Shown: piece after piece, positions 1,023 to 64,000 of the stretch | Layout: each line of letters opens with the position of its first letter | Position numbering within the stretch: the first letter of the stretch is position 1 | Assembly (NCBI RefSeq): GCF_052324685.1 | Contig: NC_135223.1 | Location: 21,381,869-21,445,868, forward strand | From: Brachyhypopomus gauderio | Taxonomy: Eukaryota > Chordata > Actinopteri > Gymnotiformes > Hypopomidae | Length of the DNA: 64,000 bases | Direction of reading: 5' to 3' | Notes under the pieces: model-generated | Database searches by the model: none | What the model was told of the DNA's origin: nothing | The model's input: only the letters and a program-made list of their open reading frames with translations | Position numbers and translations under genes: made by a program

Positions 1023-2820
1023 ATGTCCTCCCAACATCAGGAGATATCTCCATGTTTTGGTCAGGTTCTTATTGGGCCACCCGGCTCGGGTAAAACAACC
1101 TACTGCCGTGGCATGCAAGAGTTCTTGAACCATCTTGGACGCAAAGTCGTAGTGATAAACCTCGACCCTGCAAACGAAAGACTTCCATATCAGTGTGCAG
1201 TGGACATATCGGAGCTTGTTACCCTTGATGATGTGATGGAGGGTTTGAAGCTAGGCCCTAATGGTGGCCTTATCTATTGTATGGAGTACTTAACCACCAA
1301 TTTGGACTGGTTAGAGGGTAAACTGAAGGAACATCGTGACTGCTACTTCCTCTTCGACTGCCCTGGCCAGGTGGAACTCTACACCCACCACAGTTCAATC
1401 AGAAGTATATTTGCCAAGCTGGCAAAATGGAATTTCAGGGTGAGTAAAAAAAATGACATTTAAACTGCTCAGGTAAATCTCCTAATGTCTTAAATCACTG
1501 ATGCTTCAACACTGGCTCTCATTCGTGACTCTAGCTGACTGCAGTGCATCTGGTGGACTCTCATTATTGTGCTGACCCAGCCAAGTTCATATCTGTTCTC
1601 TGCACCTCCTTATCCACCATGCTTCATGTAGAACTGCCTCATGTCAACGTTCTGTCTAAAATGGACCTTATTGAGCAGTATGGGAAGCTGGGTGAGTATT
1701 TAATATGGTTTTGCAATTTGTGTGCCAGAATGGGAATACACATTCTGATTTGTTAAATACATTTTATAGAGAGAGAGAAAGAGAGAGAGAGGTTAGACCA
1801 TCACACTTTGAGGGACAGTGTTGATCTGTACATGCTAATTATATAAGGTGATTAAAAATCAAAGACATGATTCTTCTGTTAAATTCTGCTGCCTCCCTTA
1901 AACATATCATCTATGAATGTGACATGATTAGTGTAACTGCACTTGCTAGTTTCAGCCTATATCAAAGCAAGCAGAGATTGTCCTAAGAAATTCACTGTTT
2001 TCAAAGTGATTTATTAGTATACATTTAGCAGCAATCTCAACACCATGTTCTTACTAAAATGTCTTGTTGTGAGCCAGCATAATAAAATGTCTATATTTCC
2101 TGCTTTGTTGTATTTCAAAGCCTTCAATCTCGATTTCTACACGGAGGTTATGGACCTGTCATACTTGGTGGAACATCTGGCATCTGACCCATTCTTCAAG
2201 AAGTTCCACCACCTGAATGAGAAGTTGGCGGAGGTCATTCAAGACTACGGCCTGGTGTCCTTTGTTCCTTTAAATGTCCAGGCAAGTTTCCTCCCTCTAT
2301 TTCTCTCTCCCACTGCTTCAGCAACCTGAAGACTGGCAGACAAAGGTTACATGATGACCCTTGACCTATATATATATATTTATTAACAGGACAAGGAAAG
2401 CATGATGCAAGTCCTGCGCACGGTGGACAAGGCAAACGGCTACTGTTTTGGTGACTTGGAGGAAAGGAATCTGCAGGCCATGATGTCTGCTGCAGTTGGT
2501 GCAGATTTTCAGTTTGACTCGTATCCTTATCAGACCAGCCATTGTTTGGCATTGTTGACATTGTATTTGGTGGTGTTCTTCTTTTTCCCTAATTTATTAA
2601 ATGTATATGTACGTAAAGTTAGGGAGGGGGTTAGATGGCAGGACTTTTTTTATTCTTCGCTTTTAAAGTGATACACATTTCCAAAGAGTTGTTAACTTTG
2701 TTTTAGAGCCAAAATGTGTTTACATGTTCCTTAATGATTAATTTCAGAACCCTTGGGGTACAAGAGAGATATTTGGAGCCCAACAAAAAGTCTTTGGAAG
2801 AAGAAGTCATGGAATTGTAA
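1023..2820 (+). CDS. gpn2: GPN-loop GTPase 2 (GPN2/ATPBD1B)
   Basis: Five exons: 1023-1439, 1535-1691, 2121-2281, 2390-2520 and 2748-2820, predicted 312 aa (human about 310). The start ATG begins MSSQHQEIS. The P-loop GPPGSGKT spans residues 18-25, the family-defining Gly-Pro-Asn (GPN) loop is at 78-80, a G3-like FDCPGQ is at 111-116, and the base-recognition motif SKMD is at 180-183. GPN proteins are homodimer/heterodimer-forming GTPases; GPN2 with GPN1 and GPN3 is implicated in cytoplasmic assembly and nuclear import of RNA polymerase II. The phases close exactly and every exon matches the human order of motifs, ending in a short Glu-rich tail. Intron 3 (2282-2389) uses a GC donor (CAG|GCAAGT) because no in-phase GT is available. 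The other introns are GT-AG. In human, GPN2 lies on the far side of ZDHHC18, so this position before arid1a is a rearrangement. Confidence 0.95.
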
Positions 2821-6252: not shown

Positions 6253-6521
6253 CTGACAATATAGTGTGAAAATAATATCGATAATAATATGTTTGCTTTA
6301 AATAATTGTATGTTGAACTATATATATATATATATATTTATTTATTTATTTATATTTATTTTAGAGACGTAGCTAGGCCCTGTAAAATGATAGTGTTCTC
6401 ATGTTTTTGTTTTCTATAGGTTTGTTGTGTTTTAGGGGTGTGTTCACGCACGCACATGCATCCTTCGCCGCTGTGGCTCCCCAGAGCGCCTCTCCTCTCC
6501 TTAACACACTTCACCCAACGA

Positions 6522-6623
<102 letters not shown>

Positions 6624-8639
6624 CTGCTGCCCAGCAACCTGCTGGCCAGGCCCCAACTTCCCTGCGTCTGCTCTGGTTACTTTGTGGATTCCCATGTGGG
6701 GGTGTGTCTGAAAGCAGGCGATTGAATGAACCACTGATTGAATGGTGCGTGCCACAGAGCAGCCTCTTCCCTTGGCCATGGGTGTAGTTTATGTGTAAAC
6801 TATTGGCAAATTTAGGGTTATGGGAGTGTTTGGGGTATGAGGTTTACATGGTAAACCATATATTTTGAGAGCAGTGACCAATTTTTTTTTGTTTTGTTTT
6901 AGTACCTTTACATATATCTGTGAAAAACCATAATGAATCAACTTGCATGTTTTCTAACCTATGAACTATAACAATTGAGAACAACAACAAAAATTGGATC
7001 CTTTCCAATTCCAAAAAGATCCTTCAATATACTTTTAATTTGAATCAATAATGTCAATGATGTCGATTACAAACATGGCATATTATTACTGTATTGTAAT
7101 TATACTTTGAAAGATAAAATTTCACTCTCGTCTTGGGCATCTAAGTGTTCCAACTGTTAAATACAACAATGCCAGATAGATGTGGTAACAGTTAAAACAG
7201 TACAACAGTAATAATGTTGTATTAGCACTGCATAAATAAGAAAGTCTATCATTTTTGAAAAAGATGAATAAAACAAAGGATTGTATATTGAACTGCATAG
7301 CTGTTTTTACAGTGCAATTAAAACTGCATTTAATAACACTGTAATGTGAGTTTAAGGGAAAATTCAATGAGGATGCAAGTATCAAGACGCAAGAAACAAA
7401 ATATCTATAGCCAGTTTTTTTATGGTAAAGAATAATATTTGTTCACTTTTTAAATCATACCTAGATCCCCACTGCAGTTACAGGTTTTCAGTAATTAAAG
7501 TTAATTATCTATGGCTGAACAAATAGAGGGCAAAATCAGTATATAGAAATGTTGCAGTTGTGTGTTTAAATAGGACTGACTAAATATTAAAATGTAAAAA
7601 ATATATATACTTATATAAAAATATATATTTAAATGTGTTTTATATTGTTGTGCAAAGTGATCAGATATATGAACACACAATTCAATCGCTAAAGTCTATC
7701 CTCAAAATGTAGTTTTAAAAATCACTGTAAAAAAAAAATTCTCTATTGCACAGAGCAGAGCTGGAGCAGGCCAGCACTAGGCTAGCAGCAGCACTGCATT
7801 AGAGCTGCTCCGCCCATCCCCCACGCTCACTAGCAGAGTTGTGCTTCTATTGCAGCCAGCAAGGCTTCAGCTAGAGAGGTAGGCAGAGAGAGGAGAGATG
7901 AGGGGGGTGGGGAGATGTGAGGACATGAGACCGTGTTATTCTTCTAAAGAGGAATATTTTCCTCCTGTGAGATACCTGCTCTATTTCTTTCAGGGTCCAA
8001 ACTGCACCACAGTATAAATAGACAGAGGTTATTTTGTGATGATAATGTATTCTGCCTTTCAACCGCTTGCCATGGTTTATCTGATTTTCTTCTCACCCTC
8101 TACCTCCCTCCCTCTCTCTCACTCTCTCTCTTTTTTTTTCAATTTTCACTTCCTGCTCACAGACTAGCCCAGCCCTACTGTTGCCCTCTTCCTATACCTT
8201 ACTCAACGAGCAAAGCTCTCTCCCTCTCTCTAGTTTTATTACAGTATGTCTGTGGCGCCTCAGTAAATGTTTATAAAATCAGCAACATTTCAGCAACTCT
8301 TATGTGATATTCATGGCATTTTATAATAATACAAATAAGTGAATATGTAGGTTTTTTTTTACTTCCTCTTGCCATATATTAATGGCAAGTGCAATACACT
8401 TAATGCCTTTCAATTGCAATACTTTATTAGACGACAGGGCAACATTCAGCGACCACAAACCCCACCGGAGTGCTGGAGGTAGTCAACAAATTAGTAATGC
8501 GTACTATATATACATATATTTATGTTGGACCCACTGTATTCGTGCTGTATGTCAGTATATTTTATTCCAAAAAAGCTGCTTTACATGCTGTTATGCAACG
8601 GCAAGAACCCCCCACCCCCCTATCCAACACACGCGTACA

Positions 8640-9058: not shown

Positions 9059-29648
<20,590 letters not shown>

Positions 29649-35953: not shown

Positions 35954-38900
35954 ATGAAAAACTGTGAATATCAACAAATCGACCCCCTGGCGCTGGGCAC
36001 GCCGGCCTCCACACCAGCAGACACCCGGTGTGTCCGCCACAAATGTCCACGTCCACGGAGGAAATGGGAGGTTTTTCCCGGGAGGAACCGCTTTTACTGT
36101 GACGGGCGAATCGTGGTGGCCCGGCAGTGCGGTGTGCTGCCCCTGACTCTCGGGTTAATAGTGTCCACCAGTGTTTTATTCTTTATTTTTGAGTGAGTAA
36201 TCCACTCCTCGCTCATGTTAAGCATGTTCGTGTTGATTGTGGTATTTCAATGTTTAATGCATAAAAAAGTTGTCTGAACAATGCTAGATTTGATTAACTT
36301 GAGGAATATTTAAAAAAATCCAACATATAATGTCATGTATTTGTCGAGACGGTTATATCACCAAAGACATCAGTCTAGTGACTTTGTGGAGATTGTTGTC
36401 TTTTAAGCTACTTTGTTGAACAGTGATAGTACTGACAATTGAACATCTTTTTTTCCCCCCAACAGTTGCCCCTTTCTGGTTGCTCACCTTACTGTCTGCA
36501 TCCCACTGATTGCTGGAGTGCTGTTTTTATTTGTGGTTATCACCCTTCTTCAGACCAGTTTTACAGATCCAGGGATCTTACCAAGGGCTTTACCCGAAGA
36601 GGTCGCCGACATTGAACGGCAAATTGGTAAGACCTTTGAGAAGTTTGAACTGTTATAATTTTTTTTTTTAAATTAGCAGCTGATTTTATTGCCCCACCTT
36701 TGACTCATATATTTAACTTGTCCTTAGTCTCTAATACCATACCACCTATTTGGAAATCTGCCCAGGTTACTCCTTTGTTTAAAGGAGGTGACCCCACGAT
36801 CTTAAATAATTATAGACCTATTTCCAAGTTGTCTGTTCTGGCTAAAGTTCTTGAGTCTCTTATTAGTGATCAGCTAAAGGATTTTTTAAATGAGAATAGT
36901 ATTTTGTCTGATTTTCAATCTGGTTTTAGGAAAAAACACAGCACAATTACAGCAGCACTTAATGTTTTTAATGATTTTATAGATACTATTGATAACAAAC
37001 AACATTGTGCGGCCCTTTTTATTGACTTGTCTAAGGCTTTTGATACTGTAGACCATTCCATCCTTGCACACAGATTATCTAAAGCAGGATTGTCAGATCA
37101 TGCAGTTGGCTGGTTTAAAAATTACCTAATAGGCAGAACACAGTGTGTACAAGTAGATGGCTGTACTTCCAGCTTACTCACTGTACAAAAGGGTGTTCCA
37201 CAAGGGTCAGTCCTGGGGCCGCTTTTGTTCATACTTTATATTAATAACATTAACTACAATATTTGTAATGCAAAATTTCATTTTTATGCTGATGACACAG
37301 TTATGTATACTTCTGCATCCACACCTATCCAAGCTCTCAGTCAGTTACAAGTTGATTTTAACATTATACAACAAAATTATTATGATTTAAAGCTGGTTTT
37401 AAATGCTGATAAAACAAAAGTTATGATGTTTTCAAATTCAAAATCTAAACTTTCAAACCTGCCTTCAATTATTACTGCTCAAGGAACTCAGATAGAACTT
37501 GTTCCTACGTATAAATATCTAGGCATTTTACTTGATAGTTCTCTTTCTTTTACTGCTCAGATTCAGCAACTTGTTAAAAAATTAAAACTGAAGTTAGGTT
37601 TTTTCTTTCGAATAAAATCATGTCTCTCTTTTGAATCTAGAAAGAGACTGGTTTCTGCTACATTTATATCTGTATTAGATTACGGTGATGTTTTGTATAT
37701 GCACGCCTCTTCTCAAAGCTTACAGTCTCTGGATACTGTCTATCACGGAGCTCTGAGGTTCATCACCAATTTTAAATCTCTTACACATCATTGTATGCTG
37801 TATGCGCGTGTTGGATGGTCTTCGTTGTATGCTCGTAGAAAATATCATTGGTCTATTTTAGTTTATAAGTCTATTTTAGGTCTACTCCCATCCTACCTTC
37901 TGACCTATATCAGTCAAAGGAGTATTGATTCTTACAATCTACGCTCCCAGAATCTTTTTTTATTGTCTGTTCCTAAAGTTAGAACTGAACTGGGAAAAAA
38001 GGCATTTAGGTTTGCAGCTCCATTTACTTGGAATGAGCTACAAAAAGACTTGAAACTTAAAGATCTGGTTTCTTTGGGCTCTTTTAAGAGGATGTTGAGC
38101 AACTTGGAGGTGGATGCTTCTAGTTGCAAATGTTTTGACTGATTAATTGATTTGACTTATTGTCTTGATTCTATGTTCTGATGTATTGAAAACTTGTTAT
38201 TGTCTTTATGTATGATTGTTTTTATTGTAAATTGTGAATGTACTGCTGCCTGTCTTGGCCAGGACACTCTTGAAAAAGAGATTTTTAATCTCAATGAGGT
38301 TTTTCTGGTTAAATAAAGGTTAAATAAAAAAAAATAAAAAAATAAAAATAATTAATTTTCCTTTTCCTTTAAAAATATGTTGTTTACATGTAATTTTAAA
38401 CAGATCGGTATATATTTTCTCTATATATTCTTTGCATTTCTGTATAAGCACAGTGTATTTGTTCCTCTTAGATAACTCTGGGTCAGTTTCATACCGCCCC
38501 CCACCTCGGACGAAGGAAATCATTATAAATGGGCAGGTAGTCAAGCTCAAATATTGTTTTACCTGCAAGATGTTTCGTCCACCCCGTACTTCACACTGTA
38601 GTCTGTGTGACAACTGTGTAGGTAAGACCATACCTTTACATTTTTTTGCCTGCTACCACACCTCTACTCAGAGGACTATTAAAATATTTTTTGTAATTAT
38701 GCAGCGTTCATAAAAGAGGACACACAAACATGAGTAAACCAACAGTCAGGCTAAATAACAACAAGATAGCAAAAAATAGAAGCTCTTAATTTTAACCCTA
38801 GAATTAAAAGTGATGACCCAGACATGTACAGTATTATAATTTTCTGCCCATGGTCAGGTCTTTCTTATTGTTTAATAAATCAATCAAAACTATTAATTGT

Positions 38901-41900
38901 ATTTGTAGCATAGAAAAATTGTAATGCAATGAATTGTGCATGTTTGTTCTCTAAAACAGAGCGTTTTGACCACCACTGCCCATGGGTGGGGAATTGTGTT
39001 GGGAAGCGCAACTATCGCTTTTTCTACACCTTCATAGTCTCATTGTCCTTTCTCACTTCCTTCATTTTGGGCTGTGTGATCACACACCTCACTTTACGTA
39101 AGTCATCTTCAAATACCATGTCACTAACTGTAACACACACACGTGCACTAGGGTTGGAGCATTTTTTAATGTTTTAATGTTAAACAGCTATATTGAAAAT
39201 GTTACTGACCTTGGCCTCAAGGAACTAAGAAAACGTTCAAATGACAGTGTAGTGTACATTGAAACTGCTGCTCTATATTACACACCTAAGCAATGGCTGT
39301 TGTAAGATTACCCAACTCATTTTAAATGTGTCCTATATACTGCACCAGCTCTATATCTACCCTGATCATAAATCTGCAGTTTTGCACTATAAACTTGAAG
39401 GTCACTTCACTGCTTTCTGAATAATAATTTCTACTACCCACCTACAGGATCACAGGGTGGTAAAGGTTTCATACAGGCCTTACAGGAGAGCCCAGCCAGA
39501 TATCCTTTCTGTCCATGCCTACCACCTCATGGTCAGGCATTGACCATCCACCACTACCACACACATTCATCCAGTGACCACACGGAAGAAGCCTTGCTGT
39601 TTCTTTACAGAACTGCAGCCAACCACTGCTTCTAACATTCATCTCTGATTGCTCAGTCGTTCTTCTGGCCTGTAGGCTGCTTCTGCTCAAGACAGGCTGT
39701 CAGGCAGTGTACTCTCGAGGTTTTGTGAAGTCTCCTCAACGATATGTGCGTTTAAATGGCTAAACTTGTCAGCAGCAAAATATTCTGTTGGTCTGCATGG
39801 CTTAGCAGAGGACCCCTAGAGTTATTGGCTCGAGGTCAAAGATAGTCTTCACAGGCTCGGGTGTTTCAGAAACGTTTAGTCATTTTGTTGCTGTGCAGAT
39901 TCATTCAAAGTGTTTGAAATTAGGAGAATCATTCACCTGTAACCATATTTCAGCCTTAACCCCTCCATTAATGTTGTGGAGCTTGTTGTTTGTTTCTTCT
40001 CCATCTGGTCTACTCTGGGCCTTTCTGGCTTTCATACGTACTTGGTTGCCTCCAATCTCACGACTAATGAAGATGTAAGCATTACCATATAATCAAGTGC
40101 TGTATTTGTGAAAAGATTTTTAATGCATTCAAGTAGGAATTGTGATTTATGTAGACTAGAAGTGTAACAGAATTATGAAGCACATAATGTCAGACCTGTC
40201 ATTTAAAATTGGTATTTGTGATTAGAATGCAGATACAATCTTTCTGTTAATAATCCCTTTCAGATTAAAGGTTCTCGGTCAGCTAAAAGAGGAGAAGAAT
40301 CAGGGAACCCTTATAGCTACAACAGCATTTTCCGTAACTGTTGTGCTGTGCTGTGTGGACCCATGCCCCCCAGGTCAGATATCACGGCCAGGTTCTTGGA
40401 TGCACTTTGTTACTGACCTTTCACCAAAAGAGATTTTCAGTGTTGAATAACATCTGCCATTTCACTTTAGGGCTAGATTTAACCATCTGTTAAAAGTTTA
40501 ATTCTGATGGATTATGTGGTAGAAAAACCACACAAATAGAATATTGTTGCAAATACTTTTGGTTTTCTTTCAGTTTAATTGACAGAAGAGGTTTTTTACC
40601 TCCGGATGTGATTCCTCGAAAGGTCACCTCTGAGCCTGAGCTCCATCCTTTCATGGCTAAAAACGACAACAACATGGTAAGAGTGTCTTCTGTCTCTGCC
40701 CCTGTCTGTCTTGCAGCCTAGATCTCCCAAACACGATGTGTCCGGCTTCTCAAAGTCAAATCGTTTATTTGGGATCATTATTTGAATATTAATGATCTAT
40801 TTGGTATAGGTTCCCTTGGCATTTTAAAAATAATTTGTAGGTAATACTGTTAGATTTGTTCTCCAAATCCACTAAAACAACATTTCTGAAACAACTTAAG
40901 AAATTAGGATTTTCACACATGCATCTCAAAGGTTATACGTGAACACTAAAACACCATGAGTGGTTTTTTTTTTTGTGAAAGCTTTTATAGATGTTGTTGT
41001 GGCCATATAGTTGGCCTTGGCAATAATGTTGAAGGCTGTAAAAAAGTAATGAGCCCTCTATATCATATTTTATTGTGTGCTGTGAGATTGATCATTATTC
41101 TCAGAACTTTGACATAGCCGTTAGTGGGTGACCTTAATGTTCTTTAGTTGATGCATTTATCTAAAGAGAATCATGCCTAAATTGAGCAACGGAGTGTTAA
41201 AAGACACAGCTCAGTGGCCCAAAAGTGGCAGTTTCACTGTGGGGGTGGTTTGAACCAGAAGTTTTCTGATTCTGAGCCCTCTGACTCTATTTGTTTTTGT
41301 GCTTGGTTTTTTTTTTTGGAGTCACATGATCCAACAATCTAGAGATTTGAACAGTGCAGTTTGCAGTATGATGTAATGGGCTGATTTTAACAGGAGGACA
41401 ACTGTCAGGACTTTGCTTTCTCCTGCACTGCCTGAACGCTGTGGCAGGTCTCATTATTTTGAAGGGTAAGAGTGTGTTGTTGGATGGTTTGCATGCACTC
41501 TCATCACCATCTTCTCTACTCATGGCATAACTACCATTTCCATCAGCTCAGACTTTATTTCATTTTCTGTGTATTCTCTTTTCTTAACTGTGTGATTTCA
41601 GCTAACATTCTGAATCTGTTTCTAAATTTGTAATGTGTGTATCTATGTATACATCTAAAGTAGTACTTTTTCAGGAAAGTAATGAAATGTTACTAAAATA
41701 TACTACCAATGTTAATCTACATGGTTTAGATCTAATTGGATTTTGATGTAGGGTCATGCAAAAATTACATACATGTTCTTTATTTTCTTTTTTGTTTATA
41801 TAGTCTCACACATTATATTACTTGTTTTGATACTCTTACAGCGTTGACCAGTTTCGTAACCTTTCCAAGTTTCCTCTATGCTCACTTTGAGTCATTCCAA

Positions 41901-42541
41901 AAGGTTCTGTCTGCAGGCACTTTTGAACTTGCTTTTGTGTGCTATTCATTTACTTGAAATTCTTTCCTAAATGTAATGTGGGTCATCTTTTCACCCCTAG
42001 TGATGCCGGGGAAGCCATTTACCATTCAAAGTTCTGCCTCTTCTCTAAAACACTCTCAAGTTCTTTGGAGGGCTTGCTTTGTTATAGTATATTCAGAAGT
42101 GAACCTAACCATATTCTATTGATGAAATGTTTTGGCTCAGCCGTTCCATGTGTTATTTTTGTGGTTGTTTTTGTTCCCATTTTAGTTCACCCTTGTGAAT
42201 TTCAGCCATGCATCGTTGCAGTCTTCACTACTTATTTTCATTTGTCTTCTTTCACTTTTGCTTCTCTTTCCTTCCCTCATGGTGTGCAGTGCACACAGGG
42301 CCCTAAGAAGCTTCTGGAGACAGTTGCTCACTCGTCACTGGTCCACAGCAGCTGTACCCCATCCACACCCAAGACTGCCCTGGTGACCCAGGAATTCCCC
42401 CTCAGTAAAGTCTCGAGCGTGCTGTCACCGTCCAACAGGAGTTCTTCTACCAGCCACTCGGGACAACAGATGGACCAACCCGTGGACAAGGCCTGCTGTC
42501 AGGGAGAGAATAACTCAAAGGGCCACTCTTCATGCCCTTAA
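35954..42541 (+). CDS. zdhhc18: Palmitoyltransferase ZDHHC18
   Basis: Nine exons: 35954-36192, 36466-36626, 38472-38621, 38960-39097, 39448-39499, 39972-40074, 40264-40373, 40574-40676 and 42290-42541, giving 435 aa. The enzyme S-palmitoylates proteins at Golgi membranes; Ras proteins are known ZDHHC18 substrates. Visible parts: conserved N-terminus MKNCEYQQI, basic [17 protein letters not shown]1 about 58-80, TM2 about 84-108 followed by a DPG motif, the Cys-rich zinc domain with D-H-H-C at 187-190 (Cys190 catalytic), TM3, TM4 and a TTNE motif. ZDHHC14 is the nearest alternative, but the genes alongside (pigv, arid1a) favour ZDHHC18. Intron 5 is U12-type. Intron 2 carries a sense-oriented LINE. 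The C-terminal exon encodes a Ser-rich 83-residue tail with a CC pair, different from the human tail I remember, so the last exon is the least certain. Confidence 0.92.
36665..38350 (+). mobile_element. 5'-truncated CR1/L2-type LINE in zdhhc18 intron 2
   Basis: An open frame of about 480 codons (to the stop at 38140-38142) encodes a non-LTR reverse transcriptase with the catalytic YADD box and the conserved block [10 protein letters not shown]. The endonuclease domain is missing, so the copy is 5'-truncated near 36665. The 3' end carries a small hairpin, GAGATTTTTAATCTC (38278-38292), then repeated GGTTAAATAAA and an A-rich tail, which is typical of L2-like elements of fish. It lies in the same orientation as zdhhc18. 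Absence of stops suggests a young insertion. There is no ATG at its truncated 5' end. Confidence 0.9.
39500..39971 (+). other. zdhhc18: U12-type (minor spliceosome) intron 5 of zdhhc18
   Basis: The donor reads CCAG|ATATCCTTTCTG, an exact match to the AT-class U12 5' splice site. The branch-site core CCTTAAC is at 39954-39960, with the likely branch A 12 bases from the acceptor. Phase and homology ([14 protein letters not shown]) force the downstream exon to start with T at 39972, so the intron ends in AA (39970-39971) instead of AC. No GT donor or AG acceptor gives the conserved protein. Confidence 0.85.
41140..41290 (-). repeat. Decayed tRNA-type SINE remnant in zdhhc18 intron 8
   Basis: The stretch reads like the reverse complement of a widespread fish SINE. 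It has a diverged tail at the left (TTAGTTGATGCATTTATCTAAAG), then CTCAGTGGCCC, AGTGGCAG and GGTTTGAACC further right. Divergence is high and the boundaries are approximate. Confidence 0.45.
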
Positions 42542-57595: not shown

Positions 57596-60430
57596 CCCCA
57601 GCGACTCACTGTCCTGTGGGGAGATGCACAAGCACCTGATTGTTGTGATCTCTACAGTGAAAATGAGATTATAAACAAAGGTAAACTGAGATTAGTTCCT
57701 TTATTTTGGTACGACTGCAACGGACTGATCATTTACTGCTGTATGTCTGATATGAGCCCATTCTAATACATATTCTATCGCATTCTCATGTATTGTGTTT
57801 GCCGGCTGCATGTATGACGGTTGATCTTTCACATGCAGCAGTTATTACGGCTCGGATCTGCAGCGTTTTTCTGTCTACATGCTGCGCACCAGGATTTGGG
57901 ATATGGTGATGTAAGACATGGTTGCATTTTTGAGGTGAAAAGTAAAAAAAAAAAAATTATAGTTTTTTTTTTTTTTTCTCTAGCCTGACTGTGGTTTCAA
58001 TCAACCTCTGTTTTTCTCTCTCCATTCTTTAAAGGACCAAAGTCATTTTATTTTTGCTAAGAAGGGAATGTTTATTGTAATTCCAAGTGCCTACAACAAA
58101 AAAAAAAACATGTGCAAAACAGCAAGAATATCATGTTTTTCAAGATCCTCTGTCTCCCACATTAAATGTAAATCTTTATTTTTCATGGATGGAGACGTGT
58201 ATTTTTATGCAATTAAAAAACCTAAACCCATCCTAAAGATATGTTTCATTCTTCAAAGGTAAACATACAGAGAAATGGTTTTAACATATCTTGACAGAGA
58301 CGTTTTGTGTAAACAGTATACAAGCCTGCCTTTACCTCCAACTGTTCACCAAAGATCTGAGATTTATGGTCTAAACGTGTGTCATTCTGTAGCTGAAGCA
58401 CTGGATGCATTGCTGTTGTAGGCAATGAAGCTTAAGAATCCTTTCTAAAGGACAATGGTTTCTCTTTCTGTTGTGACACTAAAGCTACTGACAAAGGTCT
58501 TTTTGTTTACCACCCATGTTGCCAATGAAATCAGAATCCACTTTGCTTAATGCCATATTCACTTTTGTTAGTGTCATATCAACAAGATGACAGGTAAAAA
58601 AAACATGATATTGCAGATGACATTCTTTTGACTGGGCCAACAAATTTATGGTTGTGAAGGTTGGTTAGAGACATTATATTCGATTGTGGTTTGAGGGACA
58701 CAATCTGAAACTTTATTTGAATGAAGCTTAAATACAGCTTGAAAACAAGTGTCCAGCTGTTAGTACAAAATCCTGTAGTATGTTCTTGTGTTATTTATAC
58801 TCATTGCTGAATAAAATGAAACAAAAAGAAAAATAGGCAAACGCATGACTGAAATGTATGTTAAGTTAAAGTAGTATAGAAGTTTATAGGAATGTACTAG
58901 TATATGATACAGTAGTGGAGACTGATAAAGTACCAGACTGTAGTTTAAGAGGTGCAGTTCCACATCAGAGGCAGTGGAGGTGTGCCTGTAAAAGCTGCAT
59001 GTAACATATGGTAAGGACTATGTGAGTTGGCTTTTGTTTTGTACAAGTTAAGCCAAGCCTACGATAAAGGTCTTTCAAAGTCCTAGAAATATTCTCACAC
59101 ATTCATTAGCTTCATGTTGATCATAGTAAGAGTTGAACTGCTTAACAGCTATTAAGCAACAAGTGTTTCTTGTATTCTAAAGTGAATTCCACTTGTTTCT
59201 GAGACTGAAATGAACAGCTGGATGTTCTCTGAATTAATGTATTGTCACATGTATGGAGTATGTACGGTCCCTAACCGCACCCCCACTGATATATTGGGCT
59301 CTACCCAAGTGGGTTAGAATAAGCACCAAGAATGTTCTTTGTCTGTTGTCTTTGTTTTTGCAAGTCACACCTCTGTACATTCTGCTGCTGTTCATTACCT
59401 GTTAAGGGCAGAGTTTGTCCTACTTGCCAGATATAGACTTATGGGAAATGAGATGTGTTCTCTGAGTTAGTGTGATTAGTGTCATTTCTGATGTGTGAAC
59501 CCCAAGTTAGTGCGCACGGTAAAATGAGTGTAGACTTATTTTCATGTACTGGCATATGAATCACTCATACTGCCATTTGTTTCCCAAAAGTGCAAAATGT
59601 TTATTTTTTAAGTATTAGAGGCGATGGAATATTTATTTAACTATGGGACCAGAAACGAAACCTGCGTTCCACAGACATTCAGGGTTGAATAATAAATAAT
59701 ACACTTGCTGGCAACTTGTCAATGTAACCTAACCTTTCTTGTTAGTGCAGATACAATAGATGTTGCGAGATTATCATTTACAGTCATACTGAAAGTAAAT
59801 CACCCTGGATAAGAGCACCCACCAAACACCACCTTTATTTAGCCAAATAAAATCAGGTTTAAATTATGAAATTATTATGAAATTTGATTTAGAAATCTGG
59901 GTCAAGTTTAAGAGGATGCTCTCTGGAAGCTGGTATATGTCTTCACTTTGAACATTGCATTGCCACTTTGAATGTCACATTTTACACAACTCAGCCAACT
60001 GGTTTCAGATGCCTTCACTGTACAAGACCTCTTTAGCTCCTGGGGTTCCGCATTGCTATGAAATTACATAAGGAACTGAAATAAGGAACGCACTGTTCTT
60101 ACAAGGATCAAACATCACTTTCAAAATAAAGCAATTTAAAATTAAATATACATGGATTGCATGGTATTAATTAGTCAGAGGCAAAATATTAATTGCTCAG
60201 AAATCATGTCACTGAATTTAAATAAGGCTGGCAGTGAAGTTCAGAGTCTCTGTTGCTTGTTTAAATTAATTCATTATTGACTGCTATATAGTGTCACTGT
60301 TGTATACCAATAAATCTATATATAACAGTCACAGAATTAGTAATAGCAATTAATAGCTTTATAGATCTTGACCTATCTTAAAGGATACATTTAGATGTGA
60401 AGAATTCATTTAGGTCAAGCATAGAACATA
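57596..60430 (+). other. tent5b 3' UTR and downstream DNA
   Basis: The region after the stop codon is AT-rich with poly-A and poly-T runs near 57944-57977. Several AATAAA words could end the transcript, and I cannot choose one. A word CCTGGATAAGAGCACCC near 59803-59819 looks like a decayed SINE tail. No other gene is evident. Confidence 0.5.
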
Positions 60431-61879: not shown

Positions 61880-64000
61880 CAATGGAGCGTCTCTTGACGC
61901 TCCACGACGTGAAGGTGGTGGGCCACGGCGGGCTGGGAATTGCGGATGTGCAGCGTGGAAATCAATTATGAGAGAGGGACAGAGGATGTTTAGTGCCGGT
62001 ACCCAGGCCCTCTCCTCAGGACCAAAGCCCTCCTAATCGACAAGGTATTGGAGACCACCGCGTCAACGTCGAGATTCCAGTAGTTCCCGGACAATGTACG
62101 CCGGTCAACCGTCGATGTCCAACGGCTCCGGGGGACAAGTAGGCACAGAGAAGACTGACATGGGGCTGAAATGTACAGGCTTAATGAGAGAGACGTGAAA
62201 AGTAGGATTGATGCGATACTGTGGGGCCAATAGGAGTTTATAGGTAACAGCATTTACTTTTTTAAGAACCTTGAATGGACCGATGTACCGAGGGCTGTTT
62301 CCATAGCTGAGGGTAACTTGGGGCGAGGAATTAAATGACACATCTTTGAAAATCTGTCTACCACGACACAAATGACAGTGTTATTTTCTGAAACAGGTAG
62401 ATCAGTAACAAAATCGATAGCTAAGTGAGACCATGGTCGACGTGGTACAGGTAACGGGAGGATCTTACCGGTAGGTAAGGTGCGTGGAGTACGTGAACGA
62501 GCACACACCTCACATGCGAGTACATAATCGCGGATATCTTCCTCCCACGATGGCCATCAGTACCTTTGCATGATGAGCTGTTTGGTCTGAGTTATGCCAG
62601 GATGACCTGTCCCAGCCGTGTCTTGGGCGAGTTGAGGCATATGCCCCTTTAATGTTACTGAAACATATTGTTTCCCTTCAGGCAATCTTCGGGACCTGGG
62701 TCAGTATGTAACGCCTCGTCCAAGTTGTCTTGTACATCCCATCGGATAAGGTCAAAGAAGCAAGAGTCCTTTAAGATACGCTCCGGAGCTCTGTCACTCC
62801 ATCACTCCGTCACTTCGTCACTCTGTGTTTTCTTGTGTATTCGAGATAGGGCATCCGCCTGGGTATTCTTTGAACCGGGTCTGTAACATACTGAGAATTG
62901 AAAACGAGAAAAGAATAGAGCCCACCTTGCGTGACGTGGATTTAAACACTTGGCGGATCTTATGTACTCAAGGTTCTTGTGGTCGGTATATACTATGAAA
63001 GGTTGTTCTGCACCCTCCAACCAATGACGCCATTGTTTTAGTGTGAGTTTCATAGCCAGGAGTTCGCGATCTGGATGGGAGATAGGGTGCAGCCGAGGAA
63101 GGAAATCGTGGGAACGTGGATTTCACATTTCTCAGCCTTGACATACAAATTATTCTCAAGTTCGATGTGCTCCGTGATGGAAGGGGAAACTAGGATATCA
63201 TCAATGTAAACAAAGACAAATCGATCAATCATGTCACGGAAGATCTCATCCATAAAAGTTTGAAACACCGATGGACTATTCAACAACCCATATGACATCA
63301 CCTGGTATTCGTAGTGGTACAGTGACGAATGCTGTTTTCCATTCATCACCCTCACGTGTGCGTATTAAGTTATTAGAGCTTCCTAGATCTAATTTAGTGA
63401 AGATAGTAGCGCCCATTAAACACTCCTGTGAGGCTGAAATGAAAGGGAGAGGGTAGGGATACTTGGAAGTGACAGCATTCAGTGCGCGGTAATCAATGTA
63501 CGGCCATAATCCACCTCCTTTCTTCTCCACGAAAAAGAATCCGGCAGCTACTGGAGATGTGGACGGACAGATGAATCCTTTCTGAAGAGCTTTGCTGATA
63601 TACGACTCCATGGCCACATCTTTGGGACGAGAGAGAGGGTACGGTTTGGATCTCTTCAGCAAGGTTGTTCCAGAGAGGAAGTCGATAGCACAATCACAGG
63701 ACCTGTGCGGGGGCAGTAGACTAGCACGGCTCTTATGAAACACGTCTGTATTTTCCTGATATTGTTTAGGAACAGCCTCAGAGAGGGACGTGTCGGGTCT
63801 CTCAACAGCAGTGGAGCGGAGGGGTCCAATGCATGCAATGTTCTAAACAGTGTGGTCGCCACCTTATCAGTGCTCTAGTGTTCCATGAAAACTCTGGGTC
63901 ATGACTCGCCAACCAGGGAAAACCGGGTTATAACAGGATCTCGGGGAGAGGGCACCAGGTAGAATTGTCTCATTTCAGAATGAAATAGACCCACTCTGAG
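61880..64000 (-). pseudogene. Decayed Ty3/gypsy pol, chromodomain lineage, partial
   Basis: On the - strand, from the right edge inward: reverse transcriptase (about 63743-63050, with the catalytic YIDD box near 63205), RNase H (about 63053-62802, with a TDHKNLEY block), the integrase zinc-finger region and first part of the integrase core (to about 62370), a C-terminal segment ending in [13 protein letters not shown], and a degenerate chromodomain-like stretch (about 62120-61990). Adjacent domains lie in different frames, so several frameshifts are present. The integrase core is cut off after its first acidic block and joins directly to the C-terminal region, so later catalytic residues are missing. 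The copy cannot be functional. Gag and protease would lie beyond 64000. Confidence 0.88.

What the first reader, a model, noticed from the sequence alone, without database searches (positions are those of the whole stretch)
39500..39971. Minor-spliceosome intron in zdhhc18 that appears to end in AA
The donor is a textbook AT-class U12 site (ATATCCTTT) and the branch core CCTTAAC sits 12 bases from the junction, at the U12 optimum. The conserved protein (SPA-S-VVELVV) only forms if the next exon starts with T at 39972, so the terminal dinucleotides are AT-AA. Non-canonical ends are known for a minority of U12 introns, but AT-AA is rare. It interrupts the fourth-membrane-segment region of an essential enzyme fold, so expression of zdhhc18 would depend on minor-spliceosome activity.
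Basis: partly seen in the sequence, partly recalled or inferred. Interest (0 to 1): 0.72.

Follow-up and report, generated by a model that had tools for sequence, protein, structure and literature searches.

The report
Minor-spliceosome intron ending in AA
What looks like a fish copy of the palmitoyltransferase gene zdhhc18 carries an intron of the rare U12 class that appears to start with AT and end with AA, an uncommon but already documented variant, so it is a sound but ordinary finding.

Summary
Window 39500-39971 is intron 5 of a complete nine-exon zdhhc18 gene: 472 nt, phase 2, donor ATATCCTTT, branch-like AGCCTTAAC with its A (39959) 12 nt from the end. Human ZDHHC9 (PDB 8hf3) aligns without a gap across the inferred junction. 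Of 7306 in-frame, stop-free donor/acceptor pairs tried, 39499/39972 (AT-AA) matches ZDHHC9 best, by one point. Of 12 introns modelled in two genes of the window, only this one and the last intron of gpn2 have a U12-type donor.

The best reading is a minor (U12-type) intron of the A-type (AT-AN). It is a known kind: a survey names AT-AA the commonest non-canonical terminus of conserved animal minor introns, and 92% of A-type introns, AT-AA included, were affected by CENATAC depletion in HeLa cells. It would give AT-AG ends and six extra residues, but lacks a good U12 branch site before it.

No RNA data and no orthologous intron could be examined: the genome search did not complete in eight tries, and two collection scans confirmed no relative. 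Splicing itself, and the age of the AA, stay untested.

The parts
39448..39499 (+). zdhhc18 exon 5, ending ...GAG AGC CCA GCC AG (phase 2)
   Evidence: open reading frame through nine exons
39500..39971 (+). intron 5, 472 nt, minor (U12-type) class, termini AT-AA
   Evidence: splicing not observed
39500..39508 (+). U12-type 5' splice site ATATCCTTT
   Evidence: exact; 4th of 127,982 scored sites
39952..39960 (+). U12-type branch-point-like site AGCCTTAAC, presumed branch A at 39959, 12 nt before intron end
   Evidence: (21st of 127,982 scored sites)
39970..39971 (+). terminal dinucleotide AA of the intron
   Evidence: junction from donor motif and protein match
39951..39953 (+). in-frame CAG, possible alternative acceptor (would add LNPSIN, giving AT-AG)
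   Evidence: best canonical pair; best branch score before it only 2.5
39972..40074 (+). zdhhc18 exon 6 ([13 protein letters not shown]..., start of the hydrophobic segment taken as the fourth membrane segment)
35954..42541 (+). complete zdhhc18 coding region, 9 exons (35954-36192, 36466-36626, 38472-38621, 38960-39097, 39448-39499, 39972-40074, 40264-40373, 40574-40676, 42290-42541)
   Evidence: one stop, at the end; Pfam DHHC E=3e-36

Best explanation
This is a U12-type (minor spliceosome) intron of the A-type subclass, with AT-AA ends. By the established mechanism (recalled, not observed here), U11/U12 recognise ATATCCTTT and the CCTTAAC branch site, U6atac replaces U11 at the 5' site, and the second step uses the AA 12 nt after the branch A. 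This is plausible because the last-but-one A of minor introns is highly conserved while the last base is known to vary (PMC2831892 and PMC8280824, passages). The spliced product joins 39499 to 39972 and restores ...QESPAS-VVELVV.... Inferred: splicing is relatively slow and CENATAC-dependent like other AT-AN introns, and a retained intron gives a stop at 39633 and a truncated DHHC protein. Shown here: sequence signals, reading frame and homology. Not shown: splicing, kinetics, CENATAC dependence, and age of the AA.
For: Exact donor and good branch site at the usual spacing. Of 12 modelled introns only this one and gpn2 intron 4 have a positive U12 donor score, 13.7 and 13.4; the other ten score -2.9 or less. 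Gap-free alignment with ZDHHC9 across the junction. AT-AA ranks first of 7306 in-frame stop-free pairs. Rest of the gene intact, the other seven introns GT-AG. AT-AA is documented among minor introns.
Against: No RNA evidence. The lead of AT-AA over the next pairs in the ZDHHC9 test is 1-2 points (343 against 342, 342, 342, 341), so protein similarity places the junction only to within a few bases; the donor motif fixes it. An in-frame CAG acceptor lies 18 nt upstream. The branch 9-mer differs from the consensus at its first two positions (AG for TT). A branch-like site of higher score (10.4) also occurs near the end of gpn2 intron 3, whose donor is U2-like, so the branch score alone is not diagnostic. 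Three other sites in the window score as U12 donors at least as well. A sequence error or private variant at 39971 cannot be ruled out.
Confidence: 0.85

Rival explanations
1. The intron is AT-AG: it ends at the CAG at 39951-39953 and exon 6 gains LNPSIN (six residues) before VVELVV, as the only product or as a minor isoform.
For: In frame; best pair with canonical or AT-AG ends in the pair test, score 327 against 343 for AT-AA; CAG preceded by TATTT.
Against: The strong CCTTAAC site lies after this AG; the best U12 branch candidate before it scores 2.5 against 9.5. None of the three alignments shown (ZDHHC9, ZDHHC5, ERF2, of 8 sequences matched) has inserted residues there; ZDHHC5 instead lacks the four residues that end at the junction, and ERF2 lacks six a few residues upstream.
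Confidence: 0.08
2. The AA is a sequencing or assembly error, or a private variant, for AC; the intron is an ordinary AT-AC minor intron.
For: One base change would give AT-AC; orthologues could not be examined.
Against: The nine exons are free of frame errors and the other seven introns have GT-AG ends.
Confidence: 0.05
3. A major-spliceosome intron with some other GT donor, or no functional splicing (intron normally retained).
For: GT sites exist in the exon and intron; the best scores 5.2, at 39532, which is above the gene's own intron-1 donor (4.9) on my approximate matrix.
Against: The only GT-AG pair among the 26 best conventional or AT-AG pairs printed (39598/39954) scores 293 against 343 and carries a long insertion. 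Retention gives a stop at 39633. The exact U12 donor at the junction would be a coincidence.
Confidence: 0.02

Closest known systems
A-type (AT-AN) minor introns, CENATAC-responsive class (PMC8280824; passages, and the Discussion section)
   Same: AT start, variable last base, minor-class signals; AT-AA explicitly listed
   Different: Not assayed here; the published work is in human cells
Non-canonical AT-AA minor introns of the pan-eukaryotic survey (PMC10639083; passages)
   Same: Same termini
   Different: I saw passages of the text, not the intron lists, so I cannot say whether this intron is among them
ZDHHC8 minor intron, U12-type in fly and human (PMC2831892; passages)
   Same: U12-type intron in another member of the DHHC enzyme family
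   Different: GT-AG subtype, U2-type in D. ananassae and Anopheles; whether its position matches was not tested

Membership tests
U12-type (minor) spliceosomal intron | 5' splice site matching RTATCCTT at the exon end | tested here: met
   ATATCCTTT at 39500
U12-type (minor) spliceosomal intron | Branch site like TTCCTTRAY close to the 3' end | tested here: met
   AGCCTTAAC, A39959, 12 nt from end; two of nine positions differ from the consensus
U12-type (minor) spliceosomal intron | Excised by U11/U12/U4atac/U6atac | not testable with these tools
   needs RNA data
A-type AT-AA minor intron | Intron ends AT...AA at the used junction | tested here: inconclusive
   Donor motif and protein homology give AT-AA; use of the junction was not observed
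A-type AT-AA minor intron | Retention on loss of CENATAC | not testable with these tools
   prediction from PMC8280824
DHHC palmitoyltransferase, ZDHHC9/14/18 group | DHHC domain, close match to ZDHHC9 | tested here: met
   Pfam PF01529 3e-36; ZDHHC9 is the best of 8 solved-structure matches, 3.9e-38 for 98 residues
zdhhc18 rather than zdhhc9 or zdhhc14 | Orthology | tested here: inconclusive
   Neighbours with ATP_bind_1 (gpn2), BAF250_C (arid1a), PIG-V (pigv) and NTP_transf_7 (tent5-type) domains fit the human ZDHHC18 neighbourhood, and the N-terminus MKNCEYQQI resembles ZDHHC18, both as I recall them; no tree was made

The most novel reading that the evidence does not exclude
The gene makes two proteins from one minor-class donor: AT-AA splicing gives the standard enzyme, and the CAG 18 nt upstream gives an isoform with LNPSIN inserted at the edge of the fourth membrane segment, with the choice depending on how well the minor spliceosome handles the weak AA end.
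Probability: 0.06. Interest if true: 0.45.

Novelty: new member of a known kind. Interest (0 to 1): 0.22.

Why it matters
It adds a clear AT-AA candidate whose junction is set by its donor motif and protein homology together. It is a useful check on annotation pipelines that force canonical ends: one might choose the AG at 39953 and insert six false residues. It also makes a simple test case for CENATAC dependence of A-type introns outside mammals, beside a GT-AG minor-class intron in gpn2 of the same window as an internal comparison.

Tried and rejected
Relatives: one scan of viral contigs (5 pattern matches, none confirmed) and one of genome contigs (135 pattern matches, none confirmed) with the 98-residue protein gave nothing. 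Both collections are viral or prokaryotic, so this was a long shot. The genome search on the window's own assembly did not complete in eight attempts. So orthologous introns, the zdhhc14/zdhhc9 paralogues and the age of the AA were not tested.

Intron as a repeat or structured RNA: no other copy in the window, no tandem repeat in 38200-40300, no Rfam hit above threshold in the window, RNA fold of 39900-40000 no better than shuffles, z = -0.5. Of the three other sites scoring at least as well as U12 donors, only GTATCCTTG at 13639 was looked at, by eye, and no exon end was recognised; those at 60388 and 28198 on the minus strand were not examined. GTATCCTTA at 2521, ranked fifth, proved to be the gpn2 intron.

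No listing or passage that I saw names ZDHHC18 as a minor-intron gene. Papers listed but not opened: PMC13146384, PMC5963842, PMC8065453, PMC3964219, PMC13108593, PMC11413970. Main-text term searches in PMC7367187, PMC4176328 and PMC6717393 found neither AT-AA nor ZDHHC. The session allowed no look-ups in supplementary files, where intron lists would be. Four papers were asked for by DOI and are not held under it: U12DB and Levine and Durbin, and, by DOIs that I recalled, the 2005 Dietrich paper and Sheth 2006. Absence of a report is therefore weak.

Full report
What is there. The region was read directly. Exon 5 of a DHHC palmitoyltransferase gene ends ...GAG AGC CCA GCC AG at 39499. ATATCCTTT follows at 39500-39508. 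Near the other side stands TTTCAGCCTTAACCCCTCCATTAA, then TGTTGTGGAGCTTGTTG from 39972. Joining 39499 to 39972 gives ...[15 protein letters not shown]....

Gene model. Exon ends were set by eye and checked in scripts. After two exon ends were corrected by one base (to 36626 and 40373), nine exons give one open frame of 435 residues from ATG at 35954 to the stop ending at 42541. Three ends of exon 1 keep the frame (36189, 36192, 36195); I chose 36192 because it gives a GTGAGT donor. Pfam finds the DHHC domain, E = 3e-36. The other seven introns are GT-AG. I call the gene zdhhc18 because of its neighbours, whose Pfam domains fit gpn2, arid1a, pigv and a tent5-type gene (gene names and human gene order recalled), and an N-terminus like the human protein as I recall it; no tree was made. 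A vertebrate, probably fish, origin is inferred and was not tested.

Is the junction right? Human ZDHHC9 (8hf3) aligns with the joined protein without a gap at the junction (8 sequences matched, 3 alignments shown). In the other two alignments shown, ERF2 has no gap at the junction but lacks six residues a little upstream, and ZDHHC5 lacks the four residues that end at the junction; none has inserted residues there. I then tried every exon-5 end from 39449 to 39899 with every exon-6 start from 39800 to 40059, at least 60 nt apart: 7306 pairs are in frame and stop-free. Scored against the ZDHHC9 segment alone, AT-AA at 39499/39972 is first (343), but shifted pairs score 342, 342, 342 and 341. 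Protein similarity thus fixes the place to a few bases, and the exact U12 donor fixes the base. The best pair with conventional or AT-AG ends is 39499/39954, AT-AG, score 327, with six extra residues.

Is it a U12-type intron? With approximate matrices typed from the consensus, the donor is 4th and the branch-like site 21st of 127,982 sites scored on both strands. Among 12 introns modelled (8 zdhhc18, 4 gpn2), only zdhhc18 intron 5 (13.7) and gpn2 intron 4 (13.4) have positive U12 donor scores; the other ten are at -2.9 or below. The best branch score near the end is 9.5 here and 11.7 in gpn2 intron 4, but gpn2 intron 3, with a U2-like GC donor, also has a 10.4 site 25 nt from its end. The branch site alone is therefore not diagnostic.

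The acceptor question. Against its use: the best U12 branch candidate before it (ACCTGTAAC, A 11 nt away) scores 2.5 against 9.5 for AGCCTTAAC, which lies after it, and the three relatives whose alignments I saw lack the insert. It remains the most serious rival.

Function. The junction falls at residue 247, at the edge of the hydrophobic segment 246-267 that follows the DHHC motif at 187; this fits the start of the fourth membrane segment. If the intron is kept, a stop follows at 39633, upstream of three further introns, so nonsense-mediated decay or nuclear retention would be expected (inference).

What is known. [quoted passage not shown] PMC8280824 reports that 92% of A-type introns (AT-AC, AT-AA, AT-AG, AT-AT) were affected by CENATAC depletion against 24% of G-type (Discussion section read). 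PMC2831892 reports a GT-AG minor intron in ZDHHC8 shared by fly and human, with two switches to U2-type among insects, and summarises mutational work on NU-AN ends. PMC10853796 mentions an AT-AA intron in what looks like a human data set. No listing or passage seen links ZDHHC18 with a minor intron, but some listed papers were not opened and supplementary tables could not be read. This is thus a new, or at least not recognised here, member of a known kind.

What could not be done. Orthologous introns could not be compared: the genome search did not complete in eight attempts, and two collection scans found no confirmed relative.

Noticed in passing
2521-2747 (+): A second minor-class intron in the same window: the last intron of gpn2, GTATCCTTA...TTCCTTAAT with its A 13 nt from the terminal AG, joining ...[18 protein letters not shown]. 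One search found no paper in the library that holds both 'GPN2' and 'minor intron'.
   Followed up: partly
2282-2389 (+): gpn2 intron 3 begins GCAAGT: a GC-AG intron, with a U12-like branch site (ACCCTTGAC) 25 nt from its end.
   Followed up: no
36649-38340 (+): zdhhc18 intron 2 holds a reverse-transcriptase frame of 497 codons in the sense direction (Pfam RVT_1, 4.3e-36), followed by an A-rich tail; looks like a LINE fragment of the L2/CR1 kind (recalled). No second copy in the window.
   Followed up: partly
63276-63842 (-): Frame of 188 codons that looks like a piece of a retroelement polymerase (recalled resemblance); no Pfam match at 0.001.
   Followed up: no
6386-6843: Long TG/CA dinucleotide run, open on both strands.
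   Followed up: no
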